Shown here: in pieces, positions 42,078-59,400 of the stretch
Position numbering within the stretch: the first letter of the stretch is position 1
How the letters are laid out: the number at the start of each line of letters is the position of its first letter
From: Pyrinomonadaceae bacterium MAG19_C2-C3
GTDB lineage: Bacteria > Acidobacteriota > Blastocatellia > Pyrinomonadales > Pyrinomonadaceae
Assembly: GCA_024330265.1 (NCBI GenBank)
Contig: JANDLT010000004.1
Span: 62,001-126,000, forward strand
Direction of reading: 5' to 3'
Length of the DNA stretch: 64,000 nt
The notes under the pieces: generated by a model
What the model saw: only the letters and a program-made list of their open reading frames with translations
Told to the model about the DNA's origin: nothing
The model's database searches: none
Translations under genes and position numbers: made by a program

Positions 42078-42085
42078 TTCGCGTT

Positions 42086-42928: not shown

Positions 42929-42975
42929 CAAGGGTGGCGCGCGTGTGATGTGTAGAAATTATTGAAGGAAAAATA

Positions 42976-43246
42976 GTAACTACTCAGCCGCGTTCACGCG
43001 GCTTTCCGCGAAAGCGGCACTTAGACCAGCCGTTTGACTGCTGGTGAAGATTGCAACCAAACTCAGTAGCCCGTTTCTAACGGGCTTTCGTATGAGGCTT
43101 GAGCCGTTCGGGTAATTGTGGCTAAAGCCGGATGAGAGAAGGATGTTAAAACGCCCTTGCAAATTTATTGACCTCGCTGCCCAGCCGTCAAACGGCTGGT
43201 CTATCTGCCCTTCGGGGAAGTCGTCTGAAGACGACTGAATAGTTAC
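42976..43246. repeat. MITE-like element 4 (GTAACTAYTCAG ends, cargo type I)
   Basis: 271 bp with inverted ends GTAACTACTCAG and CTGAATAGTTAC, different from the CTCACC family, and an exact 8-bp direct repeat GAAAAATA on both sides (42968-42975, 43247-43254). Yet its interior uses the same phrases as elements 1 and 5: TTTCCGCGAAAGCGGCACTT, CCAGCCGTTTGACTGCTGG and GATGTTAAAACGCCC. It fills the 348-base gap; nothing else is seen there. Confidence 0.85.
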
Positions 43247-43276
43247 GAAAAATAAAGGTAAAAGTTTAGTTTCTAT

Positions 43277-43987
43277 ATGACCGGCATGACGCTTCATCAA
43301 CCTGATTTTGAAACCGAAATCAGCGAACTGCTAAGACTCGAAAATGCTTTGTCGGCGCGCCGTGAAGAACTTGCGACGTTGCAAGATGAGATGCGTCAAT
43401 TTCGTGAACGATACGTTGAAATCGTTGGCGAGAGGCTTGCCGAACTTGCCGAAGTCGAACGCCGAATCGCGGCGATTGAAAAACTCGCATCGCCCGATGA
43501 TGAGACGCAAGCGACGGACGAAGTTGATAACGACTTCTTTTCACAAAGGACGCCAAAGGAAAATTCATCGGTGCGGAAACTGTTCTGGTCAATCGCCAAA
43601 CTATTTCACCCCGACTTCGCGGGCGACGACACGGACGAACGTGAGCGGCGACACGCGATTATGGCGGAAGCGAGTTGCGCTTACCAAGAAGGCGACGCCG
43701 AACGCCTGACCGCGCTGTTGAGCGACGATGCGTTTCTCTCGTCATGCGTTTCGACGAGTAGTGAAACCGATGATGAGATGACACTCGCGCGCCGTCTGTC
43801 GCGCGTGCGTGAGCAACTCGGCACGGTTGAATACGGTATTCGTCGAATTAAACAAGACGGGTTTTATCAAATGAAAATCCGCGTTGATGATGATGCGGCG
43901 CGCGGACGCGATGCGCTGGCAGAAATGGCGGCGCGCATCAATAAAAACATCTTTCAAGCGCGTCTCAAACTTGACCAATTCGGATAA
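43277..43987 (+). CDS. Coiled-coil protein with J-domain-like HPD motif
   Basis: 236 residues, cytoplasmic. The N-terminal coiled coil (LLRLENALSARREELATLQDEMRQFRERYVEIVGERLAELAEVERRIAAIEKLA) is followed by a region resembling helices II-III of a DnaJ domain: VRKLFWSIAKLFHPDFAGDDTDERERRHAIMAEASCAYQEGDAERLTALL, with the invariant His-Pro-Asp. It could recruit DnaK to an unknown client (inference). The C-terminal part is helical. In-frame ATG 43286 is an alternative start. Confidence 0.8.
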   Translation: MTGMTLHQPDFETEISELLRLENALSARREELATLQDEMRQFRERYVEIVGERLAELAEVERRIAAIEKLASPDDETQATDEVDNDFFSQRTPKENSSVRKLFWSIAKLFHPDFAGDDTDERERRHAIMAEASCAYQEGDAERLTALLSDDAFLSSCVSTSSETDDEMTLARRLSRVREQLGTVEYGIRRIKQDGFYQMKIRVDDDAARGRDALAEMAARINKNIFQARLKLDQFG

Positions 43988-43997
43988 GCGTTTATAA

Positions 43998-44293
43998 CTC
44001 ACCTTACGCGATTCTGGTTTTCAGCCCGATTCATCGGGCTTTCCGCGCGAGCGGCACTTAGCCACGCGATTTCATCGCGTGGACACAGGGCGCGAAAACC
44101 TCACAGGGCGTTTTAACGTCCTTGTGGAATGGGCGGCTTCAGCCAAACGCTAAAGCGGGAACGGGAAGGACGTTAAAACGCCCTCGAATGTTCAACTCGC
44201 GCCCTGTCCAGCCGTCAAACGGAACCTGTCTAAATGCCGCTTCGCGGAAAGCTCGATGAATCGGGCTGGAAATCATGACCTGCGTAAGGTGAG
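43998..44293. repeat. MITE-like element 5 (CTCACC family, cargo type I)
   Basis: 296 bp with ends CTCACCTTACGCG and TGCGTAAGGTGAG and a perfect 7-bp duplication TTTATAA (43991-43997, 44294-44300). The interior carries AGCCCGATTCATCGGGCT, CCACGCGATTTCATCGCGTGG and the GGGCGTTTTAACGTCC pair, as in element 1. The last 64 bases are translated as the C-terminus of the minus-strand M1 aminopeptidase. Confidence 0.9.
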
Positions 44294-46848
44294 TTTATAA
44301 GTTTCGCTTTGACCTTCAAACTTCGTCTCAACAAGTCCGATGCTTCGAGAATCTTGCGCTCAAGGTCAATGTCAATCGCGAGCCTTTCGAGAAAATCATC
44401 AATGACGGTAAGGGCTTTATCGGAAGTTTGATTGCCGATAAAAGAGGCGAGCCAGTTGTTGATGAAAAAGATTTTGCGTGTGCGTTTGAAGTGCGGGAGA
44501 CGCTCTAACGCGAGCGGTAAAAACTCTAACGTCAGATGCGCGTGGCGCGGTGAATTGAACCACGTCAGACTCGCTTCAATCCAACTTTCGGGAATGCGCG
44601 GCGCGTCTTCGATATAGGCGGCGAAGTAAGTCTGCTTCGCATCCATTCGCGCGGCACAGGCGGCGAAGGCATAACGCTTCGCCTCATCGCTTCCGTCGCG
44701 TGCCGTTTGAGTTTCGAGCAGACGCGCGCCGTCCTCATCGTCGAGTGCGAACAGGGCGGCGATGACAGCGAAAGAGTCGCGCGATTGAAGTTCGATTGTT
44801 GGTGCTTGGTCGGAAACAAGTCCTTTAAGAAACAGACGTGAATCATCGGTGATTGCGATGGCAAGCAAGGCACGCAGGTAAATCAAGCGCAAGGCGTGCG
44901 TGGTGTGAGTGATTTGACCGCGCATGAAAGTTTCCAAGAGCGACGAAATTCCACGTTGTCCGCCCTCATCGAGAAAGCGGTTGAAGGCAATCGTCGTCCA
45001 CTGAAGCACAATCTGAATTGTGATTTCGTCTTCCTCACGGGGAAGAAAGCGCATCACCGTGTTGATAAAATCAACGGGCGCGCATTCGCCTTCGACGACC
45101 GAATCCCACAGCGCACCCCACAGCAGAGCGCGCCGAAAATCGTCACTAACCGCATCAAGATGTTCGTGCAAAAATCTTTGACTCGCCGCGTCAAGCAGGA
45201 AACGCCCGTATCCGTAATCGCCGTGATTGGCGAAGATGAACGCGGCTGGCGAAGCGGGTTGTTTGATGTCAATGGTGTGGGTTGAAGCTTCGGCTATCAC
45301 CGGAACGATTGAATCCACCTCGCCCAGAGTCGCAACCAAAACATCGAAGCGCATCATCCACGGCGCGCCTTTATCGAGCGCGTCGTCCTGTGTGATACGG
45401 ATGAATGAAGCGTTTTCATCGTTCACTTCAACACGCACGCGCGGCATCCCGCGACGATGAATCCAATCATCCGCCCAACGCTCAAGCGTGCGCCCGGATG
45501 CGTCTTCAAACGCAAGCACGAGGTCGTGCCAATCGGCGGCTTCGTAGGCATGGCGCGTGAGATAGAGTTGAACGCCCCGCCGGAAAGTTTCGCTCCCAAG
45601 CAACATTTCGAGTGAACGCAACACGGAAGGGGCTTTGCGATACACGATGTTGCCGTAAGCGGATTTAGCGTCGGCAAGATTTGGAATAATTTGATGAAGC
45701 GCGGTCGTCCCGTCCGTCGCGTCCGTCTGATACGCGAGAGTCTTAGCGCGCAGATAGAAATACTTCCACGTCGCGTCCGCCAGCGAAGGCAAAATTACCT
45801 CGATGGCTTTGTATGACATCAAGGTTGCGAAGCCTTCTTTGAGCCATAAATCATCGAACCAACGCATCGTCACCAAATCGCCGAACCACTGATGCGCGGC
45901 TTCATGGGCGATGAGTTCGGCGCGGGCGAAGATGTCGGAGCGGGTCGCGGCGGTCGGGAAAATAACCGCTTCTTCGCGCAGAAAAGTCGCGCCCGCGTGT
46001 TCCATTCCGCCATAAGGAAATTCGGGCAGAATCACGAGGTCATATTTGCTAAACGGAAACGCGCAATCGGTATATTCGGCAAAGAAAGCGCAGGCTTCAC
46101 GACTCAAGCGCAAGACTTCCGCGACGTGTTCTTCCGCGATGCGCGCGGCTTGTGAGCGTCGCACGTAAAGCCGCGTTTCAAGCGGCGATGCCGCGTCGTG
46201 AAACTCCGCGAACTCGCCCGCCGCGAATGCGAAAAGATAAGTGGAGATTGGCGCGGTCGCCTCAAAGCACCAACGCTTATTTGAACGTGCTTCGATGATT
46301 TCATCTGACACAAATTCAGGCTTGGAATTTGAGACGACGTGCCACGCGGCGGGAGCGACGATTTCAAGCGTGAAGCAGGCTTTTAAGTCAGGTTGGTCCA
46401 AGCACGGAAACGCCGTACTCGCGTCGCACGGCACGAACAACGTATAAACATAATTGGAGTCGGTCGCGCCGTCGTGGTAGCGGGTGAGCGCGTTGCCCGC
46501 CGGATTGATGGGCGAAGTGAAAGCGATTTTGATGACGTTTGCGCCCGTTTTAAGTTGAACCTGTGAAATGAAAATGTGGTCGGCTTCGACTCGCCAATTC
46601 GCGCTGTGTTCATCGTTGATTGAGATGGCTTCGACTTGATTAAGATGTGGATTCGTCGAAGCCGCGCGCCAGTCAAGTACGATGTCAACAGGTCTCGCAA
46701 GTGTCACGCTAATCTCAATCGTGCCTTGTAAATGTGTGGCTTCGAGGGTCAGCGTCAGGCACAAATGATAACGAACATCGCGGTAGTTCCTCGCGCGCCA
46801 CTGTGCGAGTTCGTGGCTGACGCCGTTGGTTAAAATGGGAGTCGTCAT
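44230..46848 (-). CDS. M1 family aminopeptidase
   Basis: 872 residues; removes N-terminal residues from peptides with a zinc-water mechanism. N-terminal beta-saddle domain, then the thermolysin-like domain: exopeptidase motif YGGMEHAG (about 279-286, a variant of GAMEN), zinc site HEAAHQWFGDL (His 315, His 319) with the third ligand Glu 338 in WLKEGFATLMSY. The C-terminal ERAP1-like helical domain follows. No signal peptide, so cytoplasmic. The final residues from about INSPYAGHDFQPDSSSFPRSGI are encoded by the repeat element 43998-44293: the native stop has been displaced by the insertion. Confidence 0.93.
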   Translation of the reverse strand: MTTPILTNGVSHELAQWRARNYRDVRYHLCLTLTLEATHLQGTIEISVTLARPVDIVLDWRAASTNPHLNQVEAISINDEHSANWRVEADHIFISQVQLKTGANVIKIAFTSPINPAGNALTRYHDGATDSNYVYTLFVPCDASTAFPCLDQPDLKACFTLEIVAPAAWHVVSNSKPEFVSDEIIEARSNKRWCFEATAPISTYLFAFAAGEFAEFHDAASPLETRLYVRRSQAARIAEEHVAEVLRLSREACAFFAEYTDCAFPFSKYDLVILPEFPYGGMEHAGATFLREEAVIFPTAATRSDIFARAELIAHEAAHQWFGDLVTMRWFDDLWLKEGFATLMSYKAIEVILPSLADATWKYFYLRAKTLAYQTDATDGTTALHQIIPNLADAKSAYGNIVYRKAPSVLRSLEMLLGSETFRRGVQLYLTRHAYEAADWHDLVLAFEDASGRTLERWADDWIHRRGMPRVRVEVNDENASFIRITQDDALDKGAPWMMRFDVLVATLGEVDSIVPVIAEASTHTIDIKQPASPAAFIFANHGDYGYGRFLLDAASQRFLHEHLDAVSDDFRRALLWGALWDSVVEGECAPVDFINTVMRFLPREEDEITIQIVLQWTTIAFNRFLDEGGQRGISSLLETFMRGQITHTTHALRLIYLRALLAIAITDDSRLFLKGLVSDQAPTIELQSRDSFAVIAALFALDDEDGARLLETQTARDGSDEAKRYAFAACAARMDAKQTYFAAYIEDAPRIPESWIEASLTWFNSPRHAHLTLEFLPLALERLPHFKRTRKIFFINNWLASFIGNQTSDKALTVIDDFLERLAIDIDLERKILEASDLLRRSLKVKAKLINSPYAGHDFQPDSSSFPRSGI

Positions 46849-46899
46849 AGCGTTTTAAGGGCGATTCGAGGTTTTTTGTTCAGGGTTCAAAGTTATAAC

Positions 46900-47112
46900 C
46901 TCACCTTACGCGACAGAGGAAGTTTCGCGGCTCTGCCGCCTGATGTGCGGTGAGTCTATGACTCACCGCGAGACCATTCCCAAGTTCTTCGAGGCTACGC
47001 CTCGAACGCGAGCGGCGTAGCCGCCATAGCTTTCTACGGGCGAATCGGAAAGGCATAGCCTTTCCGCACATCAGGCGGCAGAGCCGCAAAATACTTATAC
47101 CGCGTAAGTGAG
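46900..47112. repeat. MITE-like element 6 (CTCACC family, cargo type II)
   Basis: 213 bp from CTCACCTTACGCG to CGCGTAAGTGAG (one base lost in the right end). The interior is the same as elements 2 and 3. The flanks TTATAAC and CCACTAC do not match, so the duplication has decayed or one edge was rearranged. It fills most of the gap between the aminopeptidase and pxpB starts and may carry or disturb their promoters. Confidence 0.8.
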
Positions 47113-47130
47113 CCACTACTCAGCGAAGTT

Positions 47131-48009
47131 ATGAAACCGGAAATCGAAGTTTGTGAGCCGGAAATTTACCCGCTCGGTGAAACGGCGGTTATCGTCCGCT
47201 TTGCGCGAAGCATGAACGATGAAGCACACGATAAAGTGAAAGCATTGGATGATTACTTCAAAGGTCGTGATGCGGTCGGCATCGTCGAATGCGTCGCTTC
47301 GTTTGCGAGTCTCGCGGTAGTGTACGACTTAGCCGCGACGCAAAACCACTTGATGCAAACGAAGTCGAGTCTCACGCCGTTCGATTACATCGCGGGTTTG
47401 ATTAAGCGCGGACTCGAAAATTCGGCATCGTTTGAAATGGAAGCGAGCCGCGAAATCGTCATCCCCGTCTGTTACGGCGGCGAACACGGGCAAGACCTCG
47501 AAGCCGTCGCACGCCACTGCCGGATGTCACCTGATGAAGTCGTGAAGCTTCACGCAGGCGGGACGTATCGAATGCTCTTTAACGGCTTCGCGCCGGGCTT
47601 CGCGTATCTCGCCGGACTCGACAAACGACTGACGACTCCGCGTCGGGATGCGCCGCGTGGGCGTGTTCCAAAAGGGTCAATCGGAATTGGCAACACGCAG
47701 ACGGGCGTTTATTCATTCGCCACACCGGGCGGTTGGAATCTCATCGGACGCACGCCGCGCACGTTGTTCGACATGATGCGCACGCCACCGTCTTTGTTGC
47801 GTTCCGGCGATACGGTTCGGTTTCAAATCGTATCGCATGAGGAATTTGAGACATACATTAGACCTAATGCAAAAGTAGAAATTCGTTTGTTTAGAGGCGG
47901 GCTTCCGCCCGCCGTGGCACGGTTAAATTCAGCGACCGACGGCGGGCGGAAGCCCGCCTCTAAACAGGTTGATGATTTTTGCAAGAGGTCTATTGTTATG
48001 TGTTTATGA
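47131..48009 (+). CDS. pxpB: 5-Oxoprolinase subunit PxpB (KipI-like) with repeat-derived tail
   Basis: 292 residues against about 230-245 for the family. The PxpB core is clear: YPLGETAVIVRFA, YDYIAGL-type linker, EIVIPVCYGGEHGQDLEAVARHCRMSPDEVVKLHAGGTYRMLFNGFAPGFAYLAGLD, PRVPKGSIGIGNTQTGVYSFATPGGWNLIGRTP. With PxpA and PxpC it cleaves 5-oxoproline to glutamate. After about residue 250 the reading frame enters a 79-base palindrome (47888-47966), giving a non-native Arg/Gly/Pro tail. pxpC and pxpA are absent next to it, so the complex is either encoded elsewhere or broken. Confidence 0.88.
   Translation: MKPEIEVCEPEIYPLGETAVIVRFARSMNDEAHDKVKALDDYFKGRDAVGIVECVASFASLAVVYDLAATQNHLMQTKSSLTPFDYIAGLIKRGLENSASFEMEASREIVIPVCYGGEHGQDLEAVARHCRMSPDEVVKLHAGGTYRMLFNGFAPGFAYLAGLDKRLTTPRRDAPRGRVPKGSIGIGNTQTGVYSFATPGGWNLIGRTPRTLFDMMRTPPSLLRSGDTVRFQIVSHEEFETYIRPNAKVEIRLFRGGLPPAVARLNSATDGGRKPASKQVDDFCKRSIVMCL
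47888..47966. repeat. Palindrome inserted in the 3' end of pxpB
   Basis: 28-bp arms 47888-47915 and 47939-47966 (TGTTTAGAGGCGGGCTTCCG core) around 23 bases. Related to the inner palindrome at 35710-35769 (TTTGGAGGCGGGC.../...GCCCGCCTCCAAA). It lies wholly within the open reading frame of pxpB. Confidence 0.88.
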
Positions 48010-48018
48010 CGACTTCGC

Positions 48019-49824
48019 TTATCGCGGTGCGCCTCTGAAATCGCGGTTCGGCGTGTTGCCGAATGTGCCGCCCGCTGGCGTGGTGGTGTGTGTTCCGGCA
48101 AAGCGTAAGGCGGTGCGTGCGCCGCCCGTCGCCGCCGATGCGGGGAAGCGTATTAGGCGCGTCGCCGTCGTACCGGGCGCGAGTTTGCCGTAGGATTGCG
48201 GCAAGCTGATTGCCGACGTAGTGCCGAGTCGCGCGATCGTCAATCGAACATTATTGGCGACGCTCGTGCCGGTGTTAGTGATGGTGACGAAGGTCATGTA
48301 TTCACCCGTCGCCACATCGCGCGTCAAACGCTTGGCGGTGATTTTGAATTGCTGGTTAAGCACGTCTTCGCCGTCAGGCAAGCTGTCGCCGTTGAGGTCT
48401 ATAAACCAACCTATGTCGCGCATAAACGGTAAGGTTAAATCGTTCGGCGGAGTGAGTTGATGAGTCAGGTCGTCGTTGATGCTCGGCTCCATTAGTTGGT
48501 TTGGCATTGCGCTCGTATCCCAGTGCGAAACGCTCGAACCGGGTTGCACGGGGTCGGGCGTGAACAGAAACGCGCGGGCTTGCGCGTCCGCTCCGGCATA
48601 GATGTTCGGGTCAACGCCGAGTGTGCCGTTGACGACGTTGCCGCCGAGTTGACCTTTAATCGCATTGCCGTCAACGAGGGCGATTCTGACGGCGGGAATC
48701 GTGATTGTCGCGTCATCGCCGCCAAGTCCGGGTGGCGGGTTTTCCGCGACGTTATCAACGATGATGACGCCGACTGCTCCGGCATTCTGTGCGTTTTTGA
48801 CTTTGACGGTGAAGTTGCAATTACCCCGGTCAATCAACGCGATGTTGCCGTTAATCTCCGCGCCGTTAATCACCGGAGCGCAAACATCGGTCGGCGTGGC
48901 GTCGCCGTCACTTGCCGCGACGATGTTGGCGGTGACGCCCGGCGTGGTGAGTTGCGCTCCGAATTGGGCTGTGCCGACGGCGTAGATTTTGGCGACGCTT
49001 GACGGAGCGTTGATGGTCAGAAGCGGTGTGCCGAGACGCAGCACGCCGGGCAGGGCTGATGTCACGTTGCGCCCGTTCCAGATGAGACGCCGGGTGTTGA
49101 AAGCCGATGCGCGGCGTTCCTCATTCGTCATGTCAATCCAGAGTTTGCCCGTCGTCGTGTCAAACGTGTAATGGGAAAAGATGTCGCCTGTGCTGACGCC
49201 GGTCGAGGAATCAACAAAACTTGAGAACCCCAGCCCGTGAGCGAATTCGTGAAGCGCGACGACAACGAGGTTGGTTTGATTCGGTGATTGATTCGTGTCA
49301 AGCCCGTAATACCAACTGGAATTGGCGAGACAGTTCGCCGTGCCGAGACTGCTATTGAAGCGGGCGTTGATGTCGGCATTACCGGGACTCAAATCGCGTC
49401 CCGCGCGTTTGTCGGCAAGCGCGCTGTGATACGAGGTGTCGCCGTACTCCGTGCCGGGAAAATTACGAAACGAGCGCGCCGCACCAGCCGAGCCAAGTAC
49501 CCCGCTGTTTGCCGTACAACTCAGCGGGTCGAAGTTGGCGTTGATTCTGATTTCAGCAACGCTATCGAGCGTCGCACCCCAGATGTCGGCGGCGAATTGA
49601 AAAGCGATGAGACGTTGCTGACCGATGGTCGTGCCGGAATTATTGCCGACGGGTTGCGCGGGCGTCGGGTCGTTGAAACCTTCGTTCGCCGCGTCAGCAT
49701 TGATGACGACGATGCGCGCGGCGGCGTGTGCTTCGGTAACGGGCATGGACAATAAGCAGACGAAAGCCAGCCGGATGAAAAGCGATTTAGGAATGGAATT
49801 TCTGTTCGTAAATTTTGCGTTCAT
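48019..49824 (-). CDS. Secreted metalloprotease-like protein with PA domain
   Basis: 601 residues. Signal peptide ending AHAAA. The N-terminal domain contains the zinc motif HEFAHGLGFSSFVD (HExxHxxGxxF) and a terminal MEPSINDDLTHQLTPPNDLTLPFMRDIGW, the metzincin-like arrangement seen in bacterial 'PA domain' proteases. A protease-associated domain is inserted (CAPVINGAEINGNIALIDRGNCNFTVKVKNAQNAGAVGVIIVDN). The last 110 residues form a DUF11/CARDB-like beta domain (FVTITNTGTSVANNVRLTI). Exported, probably degrading extracellular protein. Ends 10 bases from the pxpB stop, convergent. Confidence 0.88.
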   Translation of the reverse strand: MNAKFTNRNSIPKSLFIRLAFVCLLSMPVTEAHAAARIVVINADAANEGFNDPTPAQPVGNNSGTTIGQQRLIAFQFAADIWGATLDSVAEIRINANFDPLSCTANSGVLGSAGAARSFRNFPGTEYGDTSYHSALADKRAGRDLSPGNADINARFNSSLGTANCLANSSWYYGLDTNQSPNQTNLVVVALHEFAHGLGFSSFVDSSTGVSTGDIFSHYTFDTTTGKLWIDMTNEERRASAFNTRRLIWNGRNVTSALPGVLRLGTPLLTINAPSSVAKIYAVGTAQFGAQLTTPGVTANIVAASDGDATPTDVCAPVINGAEINGNIALIDRGNCNFTVKVKNAQNAGAVGVIIVDNVAENPPPGLGGDDATITIPAVRIALVDGNAIKGQLGGNVVNGTLGVDPNIYAGADAQARAFLFTPDPVQPGSSVSHWDTSAMPNQLMEPSINDDLTHQLTPPNDLTLPFMRDIGWFIDLNGDSLPDGEDVLNQQFKITAKRLTRDVATGEYMTFVTITNTGTSVANNVRLTIARLGTTSAISLPQSYGKLAPGTTATRLIRFPASAATGGARTALRFAGTHTTTPAGGTFGNTPNRDFRGAPR

Positions 49825-49903
49825 AGATTTTGCAAGGAGCGGTTAAAGCGTGATAGTGCGGCAACTGACAAAGATGCCTGCCAACCGTGCGGGTTTCAAA
49901 AAT

Positions 49904-50413
49904 TTAGTTGCGTGTCGGGCGTGTGCTTCGTGTTTTAGTCACGGGCTTCGATGTGGGTGGCGGCGTTTGCGCGGCGGGTGGGATGACGGCGGGAGCGGTG
50001 TCTTTCGTGGCGGGGTCGAGTTTGAAGCCGAAGAAATCGGCGGCGGATTCCGGCGTCGTGACGCATTCGGTTTCGACTTTGCCGTCGGTCGTGGTACGCG
50101 CAAGCATCAAGTTCATAAAGCGTCCTTGCAAATCCGTTTCTTCTGTACCGTCGGCGTGCTTGTGAACGGTGAGACCTTCGGTTGAACGGTTAAGCAAGTT
50201 CTTCATACCTTCAGCCAGAATCTTGGCTTCTTCGGCGGTCGGCGCAACGAGTCTTCCGGTTTGGCGATTGACCTTGACTTGTTGCCCATTGACGGTTGTG
50301 GTCACGGTGTCGTTTGCGTTTTCCTCCGGCGGTTGTACGCTGACGGTTTGCGCGGAAGCTGTCGCGGCACACAGCACGGCACACAGCATCAAGCTTTGAA
50401 TGCGGAACTTCAT
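49904..50413 (-). CDS. Small secreted protein of the NGQQVKVNxQTG type
   Basis: 169 residues with a signal peptide (ATASAQ). The core VNGQQVKVNRQTGRLVAPTAEEAKILAEGMKNLLNRSTEGLTVHKHADGTEETDLQGRFMNLMLARTTTDGKVETECVTTPESAADFFG matches my memory of the 'post-PEP-CTERM-1' family, which often lies next to secreted metalloproteases as it does here (same strand, 79 bases upstream of the protease start). A Pro/Thr tail follows. Function unknown; co-occurrence suggests it modulates or is processed by the protease (inference). Confidence 0.8.
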   Translation of the reverse strand: MKFRIQSLMLCAVLCAATASAQTVSVQPPEENANDTVTTTVNGQQVKVNRQTGRLVAPTAEEAKILAEGMKNLLNRSTEGLTVHKHADGTEETDLQGRFMNLMLARTTTDGKVETECVTTPESAADFFGFKLDPATKDTAPAVIPPAAQTPPPTSKPVTKTRSTRPTRN

Positions 50414-50568
50414 CGGGGTTAGCCTTTCTGTATTTCTGGACGATGGACTTTAACGGATTTGATTGAGGGCGAAACTAACGGTGGTTCAGATGAACCACGC
50501 GGGCGATGCGATGCACGCCGGACATCTGGAATTTAACAAGCCACGCGCGAAAGTCAAAGCGAAAAAGC

Positions 50569-51597
50569 TTAAACGGATGCGGGCAAAACACTCCATGCGA
50601 CGCGCTCAATCAAGCGTTCCGGTGGTGTCGAGATAAGGCGCGCGTCGAGTTTCAAACTACGTTCGACGCGCGACGATGCGTTGTGAAGTCGAAGCGAGAC
50701 GCTCCAATTATTATCAAGCGTGATGACGGCGGTGTTGTGCGAATCTTTTTTGAACGCGGCGGAGATGATGCGCGACGGAACGGGTAAGCGTTTGATGAGC
50801 GTTGACGGTTGTTTCGTTACAAAGTTGTAACCGAGCGTGTGCGCGAAGGAATAGGTTTGCAGTTCGGTGGTTTCAGTCGCGGCATGGGCGATGACTTTAT
50901 AAAAATCTTGCCGCCCGACGAGAAAGCGAATCAGCTTGGCGGGCATATCTTTATCGAGTCGAGCCTGCGCGAGAAGTTCCGCGATAAGGGCTTCGATAAT
51001 CGGGCGATAGTATCGCGTCTGTTTATCTTCATCGCTAAGTCCGAGTGAATCCCAGTGCGCTCCGGTCGCGGCGAAGCGTTCGAGTTCATCGAACACAGGT
51101 TTAATGCGGGCGAAATACTGCGGACTCGCGGGACGATTAAACCACGCTTTAGCGAAATCGGATTGACCCGCGAGGCGCGGATGTTTGACGGCATCGTTGT
51201 TGGTTTTAACGAGAATGCCGCACTCCCAAGAACTCGCATTATTGGGAGTGATGTGGCGGGCGACGACATCACGCACGTCACCGACGATGCCTTGCGCGTC
51301 GGTTTGCATCGCCACCTGATACGCACCGGGAAGCGGAAGGCGAAACATAGGTTCGTACTTTTGTAAAAGCGTAATCGCGGTGGCGGCGGCGCGCATGTAG
51401 CTTTGACGGGCGAGCGGCTTTAAGCCGTCGAAGCGGCGCGCGGCGGTGCGACTCGCGGGACTCGACATAATCTCCGCCGATGTTTTCGGAGCGTGGTTTA
51501 ATGCTTCGACGACGGCGCGGGCGCACGCATACTCGAACGCTTTGCCGTTCGCCGATTCATTATCGAGTGCGAGATTATAAAACGCGGCGTGGTTCAT
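50569..51597 (-). CDS. HaeIII-family type II restriction endonuclease
   Basis: 342 residues from ATG 51597 (TTG 51642 is an alternative). It matches the RE_HaeIII family as I remember it along its whole length: NGKAFEYACARAVVEAL, DAQGIVGDVRDVV, WECGILVKTNNDAVKHPRLAGQSDFAKAWFN, FLVGRQDFYKVIAH and the C-terminal SVSLRLHNASSRVERSLKLDARLIS. Family members cut GGCC. Candidate catalytic acids and lysine lie in GDVRD and WECGILVK. No DNA methyltransferase is encoded in the window. It follows the cyclic-phosphate receiver gene by 46 bases, likely one transcript. I found no GGCC anywhere in the window. Confidence 0.87.
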   Translation of the reverse strand: MNHAAFYNLALDNESANGKAFEYACARAVVEALNHAPKTSAEIMSSPASRTAARRFDGLKPLARQSYMRAAATAITLLQKYEPMFRLPLPGAYQVAMQTDAQGIVGDVRDVVARHITPNNASSWECGILVKTNNDAVKHPRLAGQSDFAKAWFNRPASPQYFARIKPVFDELERFAATGAHWDSLGLSDEDKQTRYYRPIIEALIAELLAQARLDKDMPAKLIRFLVGRQDFYKVIAHAATETTELQTYSFAHTLGYNFVTKQPSTLIKRLPVPSRIISAAFKKDSHNTAVITLDNNWSVSLRLHNASSRVERSLKLDARLISTPPERLIERVAWSVLPASV

Positions 51598-51643
51598 CTT
51601 TATGTCGTCACAGGCGCAATTCAGCGTGCGTGTGAAAGTCAAA

Positions 51644-52099
51644 TCAAAGGTGCGCCATGATGTTGGCTTTTTGCGTTAGTAACGGAAAAGGAACGTAGTC
51701 GGCATGGCGTCCGCCGCGTCGCAAACAGTTGACCATACGCATCGCGCCGTCGGCATTGCGCGTGTGAACGGTGATGTTTGAAGCGGCTTGGTAGTTCGGA
51801 TTTTCGGCAAGCCACACGGCGATGGCGTAACCCGTGTGTTCGTCGTCGTGTTCTGCGGCGTGGTAATGCTCCGGCAGTAAATCGTGATCAAGAAACAGGG
51901 CGTCGTAGGAAGCCGACTTGAGCAGTTCGAGTGCCTCGCCGACCGTTTCCGCGATGTCAACATGGTCTTTAGCGAAACGCTGTTTGAACCACTCGTGGCG
52001 GCGCACGTCGTCATCAAGCAGGAAAATGTAATAAGGGTCGCGCGGAACTTCGGGCATACCGAAGCCGAGTTTGAACATCAACGAACGAAAGAAACTCAT
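51644..52099 (-). CDS. Cyclic-phosphate processing receiver-domain protein
   Basis: 151 residues. Receiver-like fold with an acidic pocket YIFLLDDDVRRHEWF and a phospho-site-like LFLDHDLL, continued by GYAIAVWLAEN and ITVHTRNADGAMRMVNCLRR. This His/Arg-containing variant corresponds to the cREC family proposed to act on cyclic phosphates in RNA or nucleotide signalling rather than as a two-component regulator. It is immediately upstream of the HaeIII-like gene on the same strand, so the pair may be co-expressed; a regulatory or RNA-repair role in restriction is only an inference. Confidence 0.82.
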   Translation of the reverse strand: MSFFRSLMFKLGFGMPEVPRDPYYIFLLDDDVRRHEWFKQRFAKDHVDIAETVGEALELLKSASYDALFLDHDLLPEHYHAAEHDDEHTGYAIAVWLAENPNYQAASNITVHTRNADGAMRMVNCLRRGGRHADYVPFPLLTQKANIMAHL

Positions 52100-52334
52100 G
52101 AGTCTTAAACGATAAGGGCGCGAGGCGACAAGTCAAAATAAAGGAGCAAAAACGATTATTGATTTATGCGGTCAAACAAATATAACATGAGAGTATATCG
52201 AGTCACCGTCCTCAACTTTTATAAGTCCGGTTAAGAAATTTTCGGTTTAACTCTCTCTTGCCGCCGAAGGTAAGTATATACGTTTGTCGTTTCAGGCTTG
52301 ATGCGGCGGAGTTTGTAGTCTGACAAAACCAATT

Positions 52335-52499
52335 ATGAAGTGTCCTTACTGCGATAGACCCTTGCGACGGTTTGGCACGCGATGCCGCGCTTGTCGGCGT
52401 TATGTACTGCGTTGGTATCACATTCTGGTGCTTATAATACTGGCGATTGCGGCGTGCGGTTTAATCCTCGAACTAATGGTTAAAATGTTCGGAGTTTAA
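52335..52499 (+). CDS. 54-residue zinc-ribbon membrane protein
   Basis: Starts MKCPYCDRPL and continues RRFGTRCRACRRYVLRWY: two C-x2-C pairs 11 residues apart (CPYC, CRAC), a typical zinc ribbon. A single membrane helix follows (HILVLIILAIAACGLILELM), then stop TAA at 52497. Codon use and the intact zinc knuckles argue for a real gene. The ribosome site is weak. It lies between the divergent restriction gene pair and the helicase loader; no function is assigned. Confidence 0.7.
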   Translation: MKCPYCDRPLRRFGTRCRACRRYVLRWYHILVLIILAIAACGLILELMVKMFGV

Positions 52500-52501
52500 A
52501 A

Positions 52502-52576
52502 CTTATCCACGAAACAACACCGGATTTCTTTGAGTGTTCTTACTTCATGATGTTTAGTGTGATTCGCAGATAAAAG
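52502..52576. repeat. Decayed TTATCCACGAA-type repeat
   Basis: TTATCCACGAAACAACAC on the left and GTTTAGTGTGATTCGCAGAT on the right resemble the arms of the repeat at 8686-8775, with several mismatches. Confidence 0.4.
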
Positions 52577-52820
52577 CTTTTTGTCTTACATCGCGCCTCA
52601 CGTTTTTAAGGCTCGATGTCAATCAAAACCCTGCCTGCGCGCGAAATGTACGAAAGCGATTGCAAATCATTTTTCGGGTGCTATAATCCCCGTCGCTTTC
52701 AAGTTTGCAAGTGAATATTTCACTTTCCGCCGGAGTAATCCGCTGGAATAAGCGGTACTGAAACACTCGCTTGATTCAAATGTTTTGCCTATCCGATTTC
52801 GGTTCTTAAACCTAACTTTC

Positions 52821-53645
52821 ATGTCGTCTGAAAAAAGCAAAAAACAGGCTCTCCGCGCCGTCCCCGATGCGGCATTGCCACCGGAGGACGACGCTCCGCT
52901 TTTTAAGACCATCCCCGAAAACACCGACGAATATGCTTCGACCGCGTGTCCGCTCTGTAACGGTTCGGGTTGGGAACAAGTCGGCAATCAAAGCAGCAAT
53001 CAAGGCGTGCGACGATGCAAATGTTTCGTGCTGAAAGCCCAAGCCGATGTCGTCTCAACCGCCCGCATCCCGCATCGTTATCGCCCGTGTTCCCTGCACA
53101 ACTACTATCCGATTCACGGCAACGGCACGCAGTTCCGCGCGTTCAATTACGCCGTCAGACTCGCCCGCGAATATCCGGCGATTGATCGCGGACTGCTTTT
53201 CATGGGAACGGTCGGCGTCGGCAAAACGCATTTGTCGGTCGCCGTTTTGCAAGAACTCATAGGCAAAGGCGTCGGCTGTTTGTTCTATGATTTCGGTTCG
53301 CTCTTAAAAGAGATTCAAGATTCTTACAGCAAAGTCTCACACACTTCCGAACTAAGCTTGCTCGCTCCGGTCTTCAACACCGATGTTTTAGTTTTAGATG
53401 AACTCGGTGCGTCGAAGCCGACTGATTGGGTCAGAGACACGATGATGCACGTCATCGGCAAACGCTACAACGACCAAAAACTGACCATCTTTACCACCAA
53501 CTATCTTGACCAACGCCGCGCTTCGGAAGAAACCCTCGAAGACCGCATCGGCGTGCGTCTTAGAAGTCGTCTTTACGAGATGTGCAAAACCGTCGTCATC
53601 GAAGGCGAGGATTGGCGCAAGAAGAAGGACGCGCTGAACCCGTAA
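52821..53645 (+). CDS. DnaC/DnaI-like helicase loader ATPase
   Basis: 274 residues from ATG 52821. A zinc-binding segment CPLCNGSGW...RRCKC (about 45-75) precedes an AAA+ domain of the DnaC/IstB type: [23 protein letters not shown] (Walker A), [20 protein letters not shown] (Walker B) and TIFTTNYLD (sensor 1) with an arginine finger region [16 protein letters not shown]. The zinc finger N-terminus is typical of chromosomal helicase loaders rather than IS21 IstB proteins, and no transposase is near. It likely loads DnaB. Confidence 0.88.
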
Positions 53646-53677
53646 AACAAAACGATAAATCGCGTATCAAACCACGC

Positions 53678-53720
53678 AAAGAAGCGCAACGGATTCTGCT
53701 TTCCGTTGCGCTTCTTTGTT
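53678..53720 (+). terminator. Rho-independent terminator
   Basis: A 16-bp stem AAAGAAGCGCAACGGA (53678-53693) with 53702-53717 and loop TTCTGCTT, then GTTGCTTATTTTA. It ends the helicase-loader gene. Confidence 0.85.
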
Positions 53721-53784
53721 GCTTATTTTAATTGTTTATGCGGGTTAAGACTCGCTACTTCGCACCGTCAGATGTGTGAAATGC

Positions 53785-54399
53785 TTAACGGATTTCGTCG
53801 CGCTCAAGCGGCGGGACAATGGGCGGCGGAAACGTGACGTTGCGGTAAATCTCGCGCAAGCTCAAATCACAATCCAGCGACGGCAGATGAACAACTGCAC
53901 CCAAATCAGCGAAGTCACGATAAATCCATTCGCCGTCTTCGGTTCTAAATAATTGCGTGACCGCCGCGCCGTCTTGCGCGACGAGCAAGTATTCACTGAA
54001 GCTTTCGATTGATTTGTAGTACCTAAACTTTTCGCTCCGGTCATAGTTGGCGGTCGAATCCGACAAAACTTCGACAATCAAAGCGGGATTCACCAACGCA
54101 TCCACACCGCCGATTTTCTCAAACTTCGCCTCACCACATAACGCCGAAACGTCCGCGTAACGATAAGGCGGATGACTCGGAACTTTGATTCGCATGTTCG
54201 AGGTGAAGGCTTCGCACTTGCGCCCTGTCACCAATGACGACAGATGAATCAACGTGTCTCGGCAAATACGTTCATGCGCGGAACTGCCACCGCTCATGCA
54301 GAAAACTTCACCGTTGAAAAATTCATATCTTTCGTCCGTGTTGCGTTCCAACTCAAAGTATTCTTCGAGCGTATATCGTTTCTCTAAATTGGCGACCAT
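53785..54399 (-). CDS. Uma2-family nuclease-like protein
   Basis: 204 residues. YTLEEYFELERNTDERYEFFNGEVFCMSGGSSAHERI, then the fold core YRYADVSALCG and NPALIVEVLSDSTANYDRSEKFRYYKSIESFSEYLLVAQD, with the D...E-x-L and K elements of the PD-(D/E)XK fold. The Uma2/DUF820 family is expanded in this organism (three copies here). Closer in wording to 58297-58941 than to 27051-27614. Isolated; function unknown. Confidence 0.88.
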   Translation of the reverse strand: MVANLEKRYTLEEYFELERNTDERYEFFNGEVFCMSGGSSAHERICRDTLIHLSSLVTGRKCEAFTSNMRIKVPSHPPYRYADVSALCGEAKFEKIGGVDALVNPALIVEVLSDSTANYDRSEKFRYYKSIESFSEYLLVAQDGAAVTQLFRTEDGEWIYRDFADLGAVVHLPSLDCDLSLREIYRNVTFPPPIVPPLERDEIR

Positions 54400-54597
54400 T
54401 TACTTTTGCGCTCCCTTCAAGCTGTGATGTGGACAGGAATCAAACTTGCAAAATCAATTTGTAATATAACCGCCCTGACAAGTGAAGCGTTGAAGCGGAC
54501 AAACATGCGACTTCATGCCGTGCAAACGCGGTGTGTATAATGCCGCAATCTCATACGACATCACAAAAAAGATTGCCCGTCGCATACCTATCGCTTC

Positions 54598-57500
54598 ATG
54601 CCAAAACGCACAGACATCAAGAAAATACTTATCATCGGTTCGGGTCCTATCGTCATCGGTCAGGGATGCGAGTTTGATTATTCAGGCACGCAGGCTTGCA
54701 AATCGCTTCGCGGGGAAGGTTATGAAGTCGTGTTGGTTAATTCCAATCCGGCGACGATTATGACTGACCCGGAAACGGCTGACCGCACATACATCGAACC
54801 GTTGACCATTGAGGTCGTGACCAAGATTATCGAGCGCGAACGTCCCGACGCGCTGTTGCCGACGGTCGGCGGGCAGACGGCTTTGAATCTCGCGGTCGCT
54901 CTCTCTGATGCGGGCGTGCTTGAAACTTACGGCGTCGAGTTGATTGGGGCGCAGATTGAAGCCGTGAAAGTCGCGGAAGACAGACGCCTGTTCAAAGCCG
55001 CGATGGAAGCGGTCGGGTTGCCGATGCCGAAAGGGGGCTTCGCGCGGGCGTGGAGCGATGCGGAAAAGTTGGTTGAAACGACGGGTTATCCGGCGATTGT
55101 CCGTCCTAGTTTCACGCTCGGTGGGACGGGCGGCGGCACGGCGTATAACCCCGAAGAGTTTGAGGAAATCGTGCGCGGCGGGCTGTCCGCTTCGCCCGTG
55201 CATGAAGTCTTGATTGAGGAATCGCTTCTGGGTTGGAAAGAGTTCGAGTTGGAAGTGATGCGCGATTGTGCGGATAACGTCGTCATCATCTGTTCGATTG
55301 AAAACTTTGACCCGATGGGCGTGCATACGGGCGACTCGATTACGGTCGCACCCGCGCAGACTCTGACCGACCGCGAGTATCAAACTTTGCGCGATATGTC
55401 GGTCAAGATTATTCGCACGGTCGGAGTTGAAACCGGCGGCTCGAACATACAATTTGCCGTCAACCCTGTGAACGGCGAGATACGCATTATCGAAATGAAC
55501 CCGCGCGTTTCACGCTCATCCGCGCTGGCGTCGAAAGCGACGGGTTTTCCGATTGCCAAAATCGCGGCGAAACTCGCGGTCGGCTATACGCTCGACGAGA
55601 TTCCGAACGACATCACGCGGAAGACTCCGGCATCGTTTGAACCGACGCTCGATTATGTCGTCGCCAAAATTCCGAAGTGGTCGTTCGAGAAGTTCAAAGC
55701 CGCCGAAGATGTCTTGGGAACGCAAATGAAATCGGTCGGTGAAGTGATGGCAATCGGGCGCACGTTCAAAGAAGCTTTGTTCAAAGGGCTTCGTTCACTC
55801 GAAGCGACGACGCCTTTGCGATTAGAGAACGTCGCGCCCGATGAGCTTCAACGCAAACTCGCGCGCCCGAACTCACAACGCTTTTCATACATCACTTACG
55901 CTTTGCGAAACGACGTGAGCATCAGGGAAATCAATCGCTTGTCGGGGATTGACCCGTGGTTTCTCGAACAGCTTCAAGACGTGATGCACATTCAAACGTG
56001 CATCGAAGGCAAGCAACTCGAAGCGATTGACGACAATCTTTTACGCACCGCGAAAGAGGTCGGCTTATCCGATAGGCGGCTCGCTTATTTGACAGGCACG
56101 GATGAATTGACGGTGCGCGCCCGTCGTAAAACATCGGGCATCGTTCCGGTCTTTAAGCGCGTTGATACATGCGGCGCGGAGTTTGAATCGTTCACGCCGT
56201 ATCTCTATTCGACTTACGAACAAGAGGACGAATCAGAGCCGACGACGCGCAGGAAGATTATGATTCTCGGTTCGGGACCCAATCGCATCGGGCAAGGAAT
56301 CGAATTCGATTATTGTTGTTGTCATGCGTCGTTCGCTTTGCGGGACGCCGACTTTGAAACCATTATGGTCAACTGTAATCCCGAAACCGTCTCGACCGAC
56401 TACGACACTTCAGACCGTCTGTACTTCGAGCCGCTGACGTTTGAAGACGTGATGAGCATCATTGATGTTGAGAAGCCGGAAGGTGTCATCGTGCAGTTCG
56501 GTGGGCAGACGCCGCTCAATCTCGCGGGACAACTTGAGAAAGCGGGCGCGCCCATCATCGGCACATCGCCCGACTCGATTGACCTCGCGGAAGACCGCAA
56601 ACGCTTCACCGCCCTACTCACCGAACTTCGCATCCCACAACCGCCCGCCGGAACTGCCGTCACAAGCGATGAAGCCAACGCGGTCGCGGACGGCATCGGG
56701 TATCCGGTCTTGGTACGCCCAAGTTATGTGCTTGGCGGGCGCGCGATGGCGATTGTGTATGACGCGCCCGCGCTCGAAGATTACATGCGAACGGCAATCG
56801 CGGCATCGCCGGAGCGTCCCGTATTGATTGATAAATTTCTTGAGAGCGCGGCGGAGTTCGACGTTGACGCGATTGCCGACGATGAAAGTTGCGTCATCGC
56901 CGGAATCCAAGAACACATCGAAGAAGCGGGCATTCATTCGGGCGATTCGTCATGCGTCCTGCCGCCAGTTCGCATCGAGCCGGAACACGTCGAAACGATG
57001 CGGCATTACACACGTCGTCTGGCGAAAGCCTTGAACGTGCGCGGCTTGATGAACATTCAATTTGCGATTAAAGACGACCGCGTTTATGTCATCGAAGTCA
57101 ACCCACGCGCATCGCGCACCGTGCCGTTTGTCTCAAAAGCGACGGGCGTTCCACTCGCACGCATCGCCGCCCTTGTGATGATGGGACGCAAACTTTCGAG
57201 TTTCAATTTGCCGGACGATCTGACCGACACGATTAAAAATCGCTTCTTCATCAAGTCGCCCGTGTTCCCGTTCGCCAAGTTTCCCGGCGTTGACCCTGTG
57301 CTGGGACCTGAAATGCACTCGACGGGCGAAGTCATGGGCATCGGCGAAACTTTCGGCGAAGCCTACGCGAAAGCGATGAGCGGCGCGGGGCTGACGTTGC
57401 CGCGTGAAGGCACGGCATTCATCTCGGTCAACGATGCGGATAAGGGCGCGGCTGCCGTCGTCGCGCGTCGTCTTGATAAACTCGGCTTCAAGTTAATCGC

Positions 57501-57810
57501 CACCTTCGGGACAAGCGAACGCTTACGCGAAACGGGCTTGGAAGTCGAAACCGTGTTCAAAGTCAACGAAGGTCGCCCGAACGTCGTCGACCTCATCAAG
57601 CAAGGCGACATCGCCATCATCATCAACACCCCGCTCGGTCGCACATCGCACTACGACGAGCAGGCAATCCGCCGCGCCGCGCTTCAATACGGTGTGCCGT
57701 GCGTGACGACGATGACCGGAGCGGAAGCCATCATCGCCGCCCTCACGTCGAACATGAACGGCGAAACATCCGTCATCACGCTTCAGGAATTGCACGCGAT
57801 AACAATCTGA
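54598..57810 (+). CDS. carB: Carbamoyl-phosphate synthase large subunit
   Basis: 1070 residues, the normal CarB length. Makes carbamoyl phosphate for pyrimidines and arginine with the CarA glutaminase. The two homologous ATP-grasp halves are intact: [22 protein letters not shown] and [23 protein letters not shown], each with a [24 protein letters not shown] motif and a [18 protein letters not shown] / [18 protein letters not shown] motif; the C-terminal allosteric MGS-like domain ends in [12 protein letters not shown]. No carA lies within the window. The ATG at 54598 has no clear ribosome site. Confidence 0.96.
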
Positions 57811-57859
57811 ATTTAAGACAGTTTAATATCCATCGAACGCGAAGAAAAAGAGATCGAAT

Positions 57860-58276
57860 ATGAACGAAGATGAACAATACGAACGCCGCGAGCGACAAAT
57901 CAATTTCATTATGGAACAACAAGCCCAATTCACCATTGACATGCAACGTATGAAAGAATCCGACGATGAATTGCGTCGCATCCTTGCCGAATACATGACT
58001 CAATCCAATGAGTACATGGCGCAATCAAACGAGCGCATGACACGAATCGAGCGAAACGCCGGGCAACAGCAGCAAAAAGCGGAGCAGCAACAAGAGCTAT
58101 TAGCCCGTACACAAAGCTTGTTGTATTCGTCGCTTGAGAACCAAAAGCAAATCAAAATAGACCAAGAACAAATGAAGGCAACGATGAAAACTATCGCGTC
58201 GCACGTTGACCGTATCGGTGAAGCGATGGTTTATCTGCTTGACCGTGACAGTCGCAAGAACGGCGACGGCATTTAA
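57860..58276 (+). CDS. Small coiled-coil protein
   Basis: 138 residues, almost entirely helical and Gln/Glu/Met-rich (MEQQAQFTIDMQRMKESDDELRRILAEY), with the short repeat YMTQSNEYMAQSNERM and a QQQQKAEQQQE run. No membrane segment or catalytic motif. The stop lies 20 bases before the Uma2 gene on the same strand. Small coiled-coil genes commonly precede Uma2 genes in such genomes, so the two may form a pair (inference). Confidence 0.75.
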   Translation: MNEDEQYERRERQINFIMEQQAQFTIDMQRMKESDDELRRILAEYMTQSNEYMAQSNERMTRIERNAGQQQQKAEQQQELLARTQSLLYSSLENQKQIKIDQEQMKATMKTIASHVDRIGEAMVYLLDRDSRKNGDGI

Positions 58277-58296
58277 TAAATCGGAGTGCAAAACAG

Positions 58297-58941
58297 ATGT
58301 CAGCTAATCCAAAACATTTTCTAACGCCGGAAGAATACTTGGAAATCGAAGAAGAAGCCGCGCGGCGGAGCGAGTATTTCAATGGTGAAATGTTCTTGAT
58401 GGCGGGTGCAAGTCCGCGTCACGTTTTGATTATGGACAACACGGTGATTCATCTTGGAGTGCAAATAAAGCGCAAGCGGCGATGCAACATTTTTTCAAAT
58501 GACTTGCGTTTGCAAGTTTTGCCGACAGGTCTTTACACATACCCGGACATCATCGTCGTGTGCGGCGCGCCTGAGTTTGCTAAAAGGCAGGGCGGAAAAG
58601 GTCGCACGGGAACGCTGCTTAATCCGACTTTAATTGTCGAGGTGTTGAGTGATTCGACGAAGGATTACGATAGAGGCGAGAAGTTCGCGCACTATCGCGC
58701 GCTGGAATCTTTGCGGCAGTATGTGTTGATTGCACAAAATAAAGTTCACGTCGAACTTTTCACCAGACAGGTTGACGGGTGGTTGCTGACCGAAACAAAC
58801 AACCGTGAAGATGTGATTGCGTTGCCGTCAATCGAATGTGAGTTGTCGTTGACGGAAGCTTATGATGGATACGAAGCGTTGCCGGTGACGGCAGATAATG
58901 ATGATGATGAAACAAACGAAATGAGGATTGAAGATGAATGA
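58297..58941 (+). CDS. Uma2-family nuclease-like protein
   Basis: 214 residues. FLTPEEYLEIEEEAARRSEYFNGEMFLMAGASPRHVLI, then YTYPDIIVVCG and NPTLIVEVLSDSTKDYDRGEKFAHYRALESLRQYVLIAQ; the PD-(D/E)XK core residues are intact. An acidic tail follows. Its last bases overlap the start of the CoA-binding protein gene, so the two are in one operon with the coiled-coil gene upstream. Confidence 0.88.
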   Translation: MSANPKHFLTPEEYLEIEEEAARRSEYFNGEMFLMAGASPRHVLIMDNTVIHLGVQIKRKRRCNIFSNDLRLQVLPTGLYTYPDIIVVCGAPEFAKRQGGKGRTGTLLNPTLIVEVLSDSTKDYDRGEKFAHYRALESLRQYVLIAQNKVHVELFTRQVDGWLLTETNNREDVIALPSIECELSLTEAYDGYEALPVTADNDDDETNEMRIEDE

Positions 58942-59338
58942 GCGGGAAACTATCGAACGTATTTTCAGCGAGTGTCAGGTGATTGCCGTCGTCGGTTTAT
59001 CGTCGAAGCCGCGCCCGTCGAACATGGTGGCGAAGTATATGAAGCAACACGATTACCAAATCGTTCCGGTCAACCCGCGTGAAACCGAAGTCTTGGGCGA
59101 GCGGGCTTTCGCGTCTTTGAAGGAAGCGAAAGAGAGCATCGGGGCGATTGATCTGGTTGACGTGTTCCGGCGTTCCGAAGAAGCGGGAGCGGTGGTTGAT
59201 GAGGCGATTGCGATTGGCGCGAAAGCCGTGTGGTTGCAAGACGGCGTGGTTGACGAGCGTGCGGCAGAGCGCGCGGCGGAAGCCGGATTGATGGTGGTTA
59301 TGAATAGATGTTGGTTGCGCGATTATGCCAGACGGTGA
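58934..59338 (+). CDS. CoA-binding protein (YccU-like)
   Basis: 134 residues from ATG 58934, overlapping the Uma2 stop by 8 bases; GAGG at 58923-58926 is the ribosome site and a TTG at 58928 is less likely. The Rossmann CoA-binding domain is recognisable: VIAVVGLSSKPRPSNMVAKYMKQHDYQIVPVNPRETEVLGERAFASLKEA, IDLVDVFRRSEEAGAVVDEAIAIGAKAVWLQDGVVDERA, VMNRCW. Family members resemble succinyl-CoA ligase alpha N-domains; the cellular role is not established. Confidence 0.92.
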   Translation: MNERETIERIFSECQVIAVVGLSSKPRPSNMVAKYMKQHDYQIVPVNPRETEVLGERAFASLKEAKESIGAIDLVDVFRRSEEAGAVVDEAIAIGAKAVWLQDGVVDERAAERAAEAGLMVVMNRCWLRDYARR

Positions 59339-59400
59339 AAGATGTTGGCGGTAGTCTTATAATTCGGGTCTGACAACTAATCTCGCACGGGTTCAGGTTT

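What the first reader, a model, noticed from the sequence alone, without database searches (positions are those of the whole stretch)
50569..51597. HaeIII-type restriction enzyme with no methyltransferase in sight: restriction without modification?
The gene matches RE_HaeIII from end to end, and its neighbours within 10 kb on either side include no DNA methyltransferase. Combined with the apparent absence of GGCC, the host may be immune simply because it has purged the target, so the modification half of the system is dispensable. Such a self-protecting 'site-free' restriction system would differ from normal type II R-M and would work against any incoming DNA that contains GGCC.
Basis: inference. 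Interest (0 to 1): 0.9.

Follow-up and report, generated by a model that had tools for sequence, protein, structure and literature searches.

The report
GGCC-free genome, solitary HaeIII relative
This soil-bacterium genome really has lost almost every copy of the DNA word GGCC and carries a lone relative of the enzyme that cuts it, but 18 related genomes lost GGCC without that gene and its closest relatives sit in genomes full of GGCC, so the gene is probably not the cause and what removed GGCC is still unknown.

Summary
Window 50569-51642 (-) encodes a full-length RE_HaeIII protein. No methyltransferase of the two families searched (C5; N4/N6 PF01555) lies on its contig. GGCC is 0 of 272 expected in the window; TGGCCG is 12 against 2,952 control words in the genome.

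Of 119 family genomes, 19 (9 of 29 genera) are GGCC-free and only this one carries RE_HaeIII; the other four carriers are GGCC-rich. The gene belongs to a well-supported solitary Acidobacteriota clade, with changes (S144L, H149N) at sites invariant in 25 methyltransferase-paired enzymes. Two sister genes live in GGCC-rich genomes with no detectable C5 methyltransferase. This genome is also purged of most hexameric palindromes, GATC, CCWGG, CYCGRG, GDGCHC and RGCGCY, which HaeIII cannot explain.

The general idea of restriction without modification survives, with another enzyme. Relative G111 has 1 GGCC in 1.08 Mb (4,195 expected), no C5 methyltransferase, and one PF01555 enzyme, also found in a GGCC-rich relative. 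GGCC is absent even where a synonymous choice would create it (0 of 5,914 codon contexts), which fits selection by cleavage. I did not find the enzyme. D12-class GGCC methyltransferases were not searched genome-wide.

The parts
50569..51642 (-). Solitary, diverged HaeIII-family (RE_HaeIII, PF09556) nuclease homologue, 357 aa from TTG (342 aa from the ATG at 51597). D122, D125 and K146 kept; S144L, H149N, S158A and G164A against the paired enzymes
   Evidence: Pfam 255 bits end to end; only copy in genome; residue comparison; tree; AlphaFold pLDDT 90, nearest solved fold the restriction enzyme HinP1I, weakly
51644..52099 (-). cREC_REC receiver-domain protein, 151 aa, directly upstream on the same strand; ends next to the RE ORF start, so possibly one transcription unit
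   Evidence: Pfam 64.7 bits; coordinates
1..64000 (.). Whole window free of GGCC (0 against 272 expected) and nearly free of GATC (14 against 377)

Best explanation
The window gene is a solitary, diverged HaeIII-family protein that has probably changed or lost GGCC cleavage. The loss of GGCC from this genome is real but is a separate, recurrent trait of this family of Acidobacteriota (Pyrinomonadaceae by the names of two relatives). Shown: near-zero GGCC in 19 of 119 family genomes; GGCC avoided by synonymous codon choice; no association with RE_HaeIII; in this genome a purge of many other Type II recognition patterns too. Inferred: the purge is selection by restriction. For most sites this would be ordinary leaky restriction-modification systems, present or lost. 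For GGCC, which is wholly absent even in relatives with no visible GGCC methyltransferase, it would be a GGCC-cutting activity against which the host DNA has no, or very poor, methyl protection. That enzyme is probably not the window gene and was not found.
For:: RE_HaeIII in 5 of 119 genomes, GGCC-free state in 19, overlap one genome; sister genes in G023 and G024 (no C5 methyltransferase found) and in G109 (one C5 enzyme, elsewhere in the genome), all GGCC-rich; window protein in a four-member Acidobacteriota orphan clade, support 100/99. S144, H149, S158 and G164 invariant in 25 of 25 paired enzymes, changed in the window; H149N shared by the clade; the sister pair G023/G024 has dN 0.16 and dS 0.92, so the protein is under purifying selection for some function. 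GCC share of alanine codons after G is 0/334 (window) and 0/5,914 (G111) against 0.37 and 0.34 elsewhere; normal relatives 0.29 against 0.29; hexamer palindromes 0.32 of expected, and the non-palindromic forms of CYCGRG (2/92), GRGCYC (1/71) and RGCGCY (2/236) are purged, while those of GTYRAC and GRCGYC are not, as enzyme-specific selection predicts. G111 has 1 GGCC in 1.08 Mb against 4,195 expected.
Against: No GGCC-cutting enzyme other than the window homologue was identified in any GGCC-free genome; RE_NgoPII gave no match, although its control rang nowhere, and 122 nuclease-like ORFs from 28% of G111 gave no restriction-enzyme family. The window protein keeps D122, D125 and K146, so activity is not excluded, and in this one genome it could contribute. 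PF02086 (D12) methyltransferases were not searched genome-wide, and a GGCC methyltransferase of that class is known in Anabaena (PMC4390886). The genomes are incomplete assemblies.
Confidence: 0.55

Rival explanations
1. Site-free restriction by this gene: the HaeIII homologue is active, GGCC was purged from the genome, the methyltransferase became dispensable and was lost, and the enzyme now destroys any GGCC-bearing DNA.
For: Full-length homologue; GGCC near zero genome-wide; no HaeIII-type methyltransferase in the genome; GGCC is 0 of 164 even in contigs whose GATC content looks foreign; PacI is a precedent for a solitary enzyme in a host lacking its site (PMC3488263).
Against: Eighteen GGCC-free relatives lack the gene. 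Sister proteins coexist with GGCC-rich, apparently unprotected genomes. S144L, H149N and other changes at otherwise invariant positions. The many other purged words need other enzymes.
Confidence: 0.15
2. All of it is ordinary restriction avoidance: the family gains and loses many orthodox Type II systems, and GGCC loss is the scar of old, leaky GGCC systems (protected by a methyltransferase not recognised here, or already lost).
For: This genome has 3 C5 and about a dozen N4/N6 methyltransferase genes against 4 PF01555 matches each in GGCC-rich G003 and G067. Avoidance of orthodox Type II sites, including traces of lost systems, is well documented (PMC4687349). GCGC is 3 of 60 in G007, which has an HhaI-like methyltransferase.
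Against: GGCC loss is total (1 of 4,195 in G111), whereas G007's GCGC, with a methyltransferase present, is reduced to 0.05, not zero. Both species of genus g28 are GGCC-free yet show no C5 and a single PF01555 enzyme that GGCC-rich G003 also carries. A scar without continuing selection should refill.
Confidence: 0.25
3. Mutation rather than selection: methylation of GGCC followed by deamination erodes the sites.
For: Transitions are common mutations; GGCT, one possible product, is raised in G111.
Against: GGTC, the product of deaminating the inner HaeIII-type methylcytosine, is not raised (0.91 in this genome, 1.19 in G111, 1.19 in normal relatives), while GGCA and GGCG are raised as well. 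Nine GGCC-free genomes show no C5 methyltransferase. Deamination would not be expected to take a four-letter word to zero.
Confidence: 0.03
4. Assembly or binning artefact.
For: Many of these genomes are draft metagenome assemblies; two of the three GGCC sites seen here lie at contig ends.
Against: The effect runs through long contigs, holds in assemblies of 8 and 20 contigs (G007, G033, G042), leaves reading frames intact and works through synonymous codons.
Confidence: 0.01

Closest known systems
HaeIII Type II restriction-modification system (RE_HaeIII, PF09556, with M.HaeIII)
   Same: Full-length homology; D122, D125, K146 and most invariant residues kept
   Different: 27 of the 36 loci fetched have an adjacent methyltransferase with the MSRNR recognition motif; the window gene has none, belongs to an orphan clade and is altered at S144 and H149
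PacI of Pseudomonas alcaligenes (solitary endonuclease, host genome without its sites; PMC3488263)
   Same: Lone endonuclease-like gene in a genome without the presumed target
   Different: PacI is active, on an 8-base site (site length from general knowledge); here the word has 4 bases and thousands of expected sites, activity is unproven, and the purge also occurs without the gene
Avoidance of orthodox Type II sites in prokaryotic genomes (Rusinov 2015, PMC4687349)
   Same: Under-represented recognition sites, including in genomes lacking the system
   Different: Extent: near-total loss of a tetranucleotide in 19 species of one family, and of dozens of hexamers in this genome
Solitary restriction endonucleases (Ershova 2012, PMC3488263)
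   Same: A restriction-enzyme homologue with no linked or recognisable partner methyltransferase; that paper lists absent sites and changed function as explanations
   Different: GGCC and HaeIII are not mentioned in its main text

Membership tests
HaeIII-family endonuclease (PF09556) | Full-length match to the family profile | tested here: met
   255 bits, profile 1-298 of 298
HaeIII-family endonuclease (PF09556) | Residues invariant in methyltransferase-paired members | tested here: not met
   S144L, H149N, S158A, G164A, L216I, Y240F and N265S against 25/25 paired enzymes; D122, D125 and K146 kept
HaeIII-family endonuclease (PF09556) | Cleavage of GGCC | not testable with these tools
   Needs protein; sister proteins coexist with GGCC-rich genomes, which argues against it
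HaeIII-family endonuclease (PF09556) | Restriction-endonuclease-like fold | tested here: inconclusive
   Confident model (pLDDT 90); best PDB match HinP1I, probability 0.92 but E 3e-3 and TM-score 0.26-0.35
HaeIII restriction-modification system | Adjacent C5 methyltransferase with HaeIII-type recognition motif | tested here: not met
   None on the contig; none of the genome's three C5 enzymes has the motif
Solitary site-free restriction (PacI-like) | Host genome lacks the recognition site | tested here: met
   3 of 1,014 expected in 248 kb; TGGCCG 12 against 2,952 genome-wide
Solitary site-free restriction (PacI-like) | No methyltransferase for the site anywhere in the genome | tested here: inconclusive
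   No HaeIII-type C5 enzyme; about a dozen PF01555 genes of unknown specificity; D12 class not searched
Solitary site-free restriction (PacI-like) | Gene presence goes with site absence | tested here: not met
   1 of 5 carriers is GGCC-free; 18 of 19 GGCC-free genomes lack the gene

The most novel reading that the evidence does not exclude
Several lineages of this family carry an unidentified GGCC-cutting defence that works without any methyltransferase: the host is immune only because every GGCC has been removed from its genome. This would be restriction without modification at a four-base site, arising repeatedly, with the window's HaeIII relative as a bystander or a partial contributor.
Probability: 0.35. 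Interest if true: 0.9.

Novelty: new variant of a known kind. Interest (0 to 1): 0.6.

Why it matters
Textbook restriction needs methylation for self-protection. A bacterial genome stripped of a four-base word across several megabases, repeatedly and within one family, would show that removing the target is a workable alternative to marking it. It would also make a barrier against phages and foreign DNA that no methylated donor could cross unless it carried GGCC methylation. G110, G111 and G033 give a clean setting to find the responsible enzyme: in the G033 and G111 stretches sampled, GGCC is the one tetramer removed outright. The multi-site purge in this genome is also a striking record of restriction pressure.

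Tried and rejected
RE_NgoPII as an alternative GGCC enzyme: 0 of 119 genomes, but the control was also silent. An M.HaeIII-like methyltransferase hidden elsewhere: only GGCC-rich G067 has a full-length one. A GGCC-specific role for the family-wide PF01555 enzyme next to exonuclease III in GGCC-free relatives: it has a DPPY motif, typical of adenine methyltransferases, and GGCC-rich G003 has it too. Spacing variants of GG..CC: GGWCC is also lowered in all GGCC-free genomes sampled (0.15-0.47 of expected) and GGNNCC varies (0.16-0.89), which hints at relaxed specificity but is unexplained. PADLOC and Pfam scans of 122 nuclease-like ORFs from 28% of G111 found no restriction-enzyme family; the Pfam run shows only its 25 commonest families. 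A motif screen for amino-methyltransferases in the fetched parts of five GGCC-free genomes found only the core enzyme, but the alpha-class pattern had no positive control. Literature searches found no report of GGCC-free Acidobacteriota.

Full report
What was checked. The ORF 50569-51642 on the minus strand encodes 357 residues that match RE_HaeIII over the whole profile, and it is the only such gene in the genome. The genome, G000, is a 4.80 Mb assembly in 144 contigs, 94% complete. GGCC is absent from the window (0 against 272 expected). In 248 kb made up of the window and stretches of other contigs there are 3 against 1,014 expected. Genome-wide, TGGCCG occurs 12 times against 2,952 for the reversed control word. 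The three C5 methyltransferases and the PF01555 enzymes lie on other contigs.

Is the gene the cause of the purge? The same GGCC count in 119 genomes of the family is bimodal. Nineteen genomes from 9 of 29 genera have less than 5% of the control count; the next lowest has 14% and most are near the control. RE_HaeIII occurs in five genomes, G000, G023, G024, G067 and G109, and only G000 is GGCC-free. G067 has the textbook arrangement, enzyme plus adjacent methyltransferase, and normal GGCC. G023 and G024 carry the solitary gene, show no C5 methyltransferase at all and keep about 60% of the control count of GGCC. So gene and trait are decoupled in both directions.

What the protein is. Of 36 RE_HaeIII loci found in public genomes, 27 have a neighbouring C5 methyltransferase with the MSRNR recognition motif. 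The window protein falls with the G023, G024 and G109 proteins in an orphan Acidobacteriota clade with support 100/99. Twenty-five paired enzymes are invariant at S144 (two residues before K146), H149, S158 and G164; the window protein has L, N, A and A there, and the whole clade has N at 149. D122, D125 and K146 are kept. The model is confident, and the only suggestive solved relative is the restriction enzyme HinP1I, weakly. If the fold is of the PD-(D/E)XK kind, S144 sits at the position of a catalytic residue; that is inference. Between G023 and G024 the gene has dN 0.16 and dS 0.92, so it is maintained for some function.

What else is missing from the genome. Hexameric palindromes as a class are at 0.32 of expected against 1.04 for other hexamers; TTCGAA is 0/175, GACGTC 0/98, ACGCGT 1/177, GGCGCC 1/164. 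GATC is 65/1,376, CCWGG 5/112 and GGWCC 44/289. The non-palindromic forms of CYCGRG (2/92), GRGCYC (1/71), GDGCHC (11/246) and RGCGCY (2/236) are purged, while those of GTYRAC (1.27) and GRCGYC (0.97) are not, and AAGCTT, TTATAA and TGTACA are close to or above expectation. This pattern follows enzyme specificities rather than palindromes in general, as expected from past or present Type II systems; avoidance of such sites, even as a trace of lost systems, is documented (PMC4687349). The genome has about a dozen PF01555 genes against four matches in each of two GGCC-rich relatives.

Why GGCC is special. G033 and G111 are close to normal for most tetramers (G111 also lowers CATG to 0.38 and GTAC to 0.54) yet have almost no GGCC. 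In 1.08 Mb of G111 there is one GGCC against 4,195 expected. The share of GCC among alanine codons following a G is 0 of 5,914 in G111 and 0 of 334 in the window, against 0.34 and 0.37 in other contexts; in GGCC-rich relatives it is 0.29 in both. GGTC, the product expected from deamination of the inner methylcytosine, is not enriched. This is selection on DNA that acts through synonymous changes. G111 has no C5 methyltransferase by the Pfam model, and its single PF01555 enzyme has a DPPY motif and is shared with GGCC-rich G003. Nine of the 19 GGCC-free genomes show no C5 methyltransferase, and none of those found in GGCC-free genomes has the HaeIII-type motif. These facts are what unprotected GGCC cleavage would leave, but no candidate enzyme was found, and D12-class methyltransferases, which include a GGCC enzyme in Anabaena (PMC4390886), were not searched genome-wide.

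Mechanism. Shown: GGCC purge, its recurrence, its synonymous signature and its independence from RE_HaeIII. Inferred: selection by cleavage. Most likely, the window protein is a diverged solitary HaeIII relative of changed or lost activity, and GGCC was removed under pressure from another GGCC-cutting enzyme with poor or no methyl protection, in a genome further shaped by many Type II systems.

Comparison. PacI is the stated precedent for a solitary enzyme in a host that lacks its site (PMC3488263), but with an eight-base site. Near-total loss of a four-base word in many species of one family was not found in the literature searched.

Limits. Most genomes are incomplete drafts; counts of GGCC in relatives rest on one hexamer context plus sampled stretches; expected counts come from low-order Markov models; the causal enzyme is unidentified; and no activity was measured.

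Noticed in passing
window 1-64000 and genome samples L005-L022: Besides GGCC, the genome lacks most hexameric palindromes, GATC, CCWGG and several degenerate Type II patterns, while AAGCTT, TTATAA and TGTACA are close to or above expectation.
   Followed up: yes
L007, L016, L019, L023, L024 (G000 contigs): Contigs with higher GATC (0.40 of expected), so perhaps recently acquired or mis-binned, still have 0 of 164 expected GGCC.
   Followed up: partly
L039-L058 and G111 stretches: GGWCC is lowered to 0.15-0.47 of expected in every GGCC-free genome sampled but is 0.74-1.19 in normal ones; it may mark relaxed specificity of the unknown enzyme.
   Followed up: partly
window 53785-54399 (-) and 58297-58941 (+): Two Uma2 (PF05685) putative nuclease genes within 5 kb of each other near the HaeIII homologue.
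   Followed up: no
L001 675-1229 and 1396-2415 (G000 contig C14): HhaI-like C5 methyltransferase beside purQ and an SRA-domain protein; a close homologue sits in GGCC-rich G003.
   Followed up: partly
L039-L040 and L031 (G007): GGCC-free G007 also has GCGC at 3 of 60 expected and an HhaI-like methyltransferase.
   Followed up: partly
L025 1035-1469 (G067): The complete HaeIII-type system of G067 is followed by an ORF that looks like a Vsr-type repair endonuclease, judged by eye from its sequence.
   Followed up: no
L070, L083, L088, L089: RE_HaeIII homologues with no C5 methyltransferase within the fetched flanks also occur in Obscuribacterales and Nitrosopumilaceae.
   Followed up: no
L148 1279-2304, L149, L150, L153, L099, L155, L100, L111: A conserved PF01555 methyltransferase with a DPPY motif is found across the family, next to a gene that looks like exonuclease III in six of the GGCC-free genomes.
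   Followed up: partly
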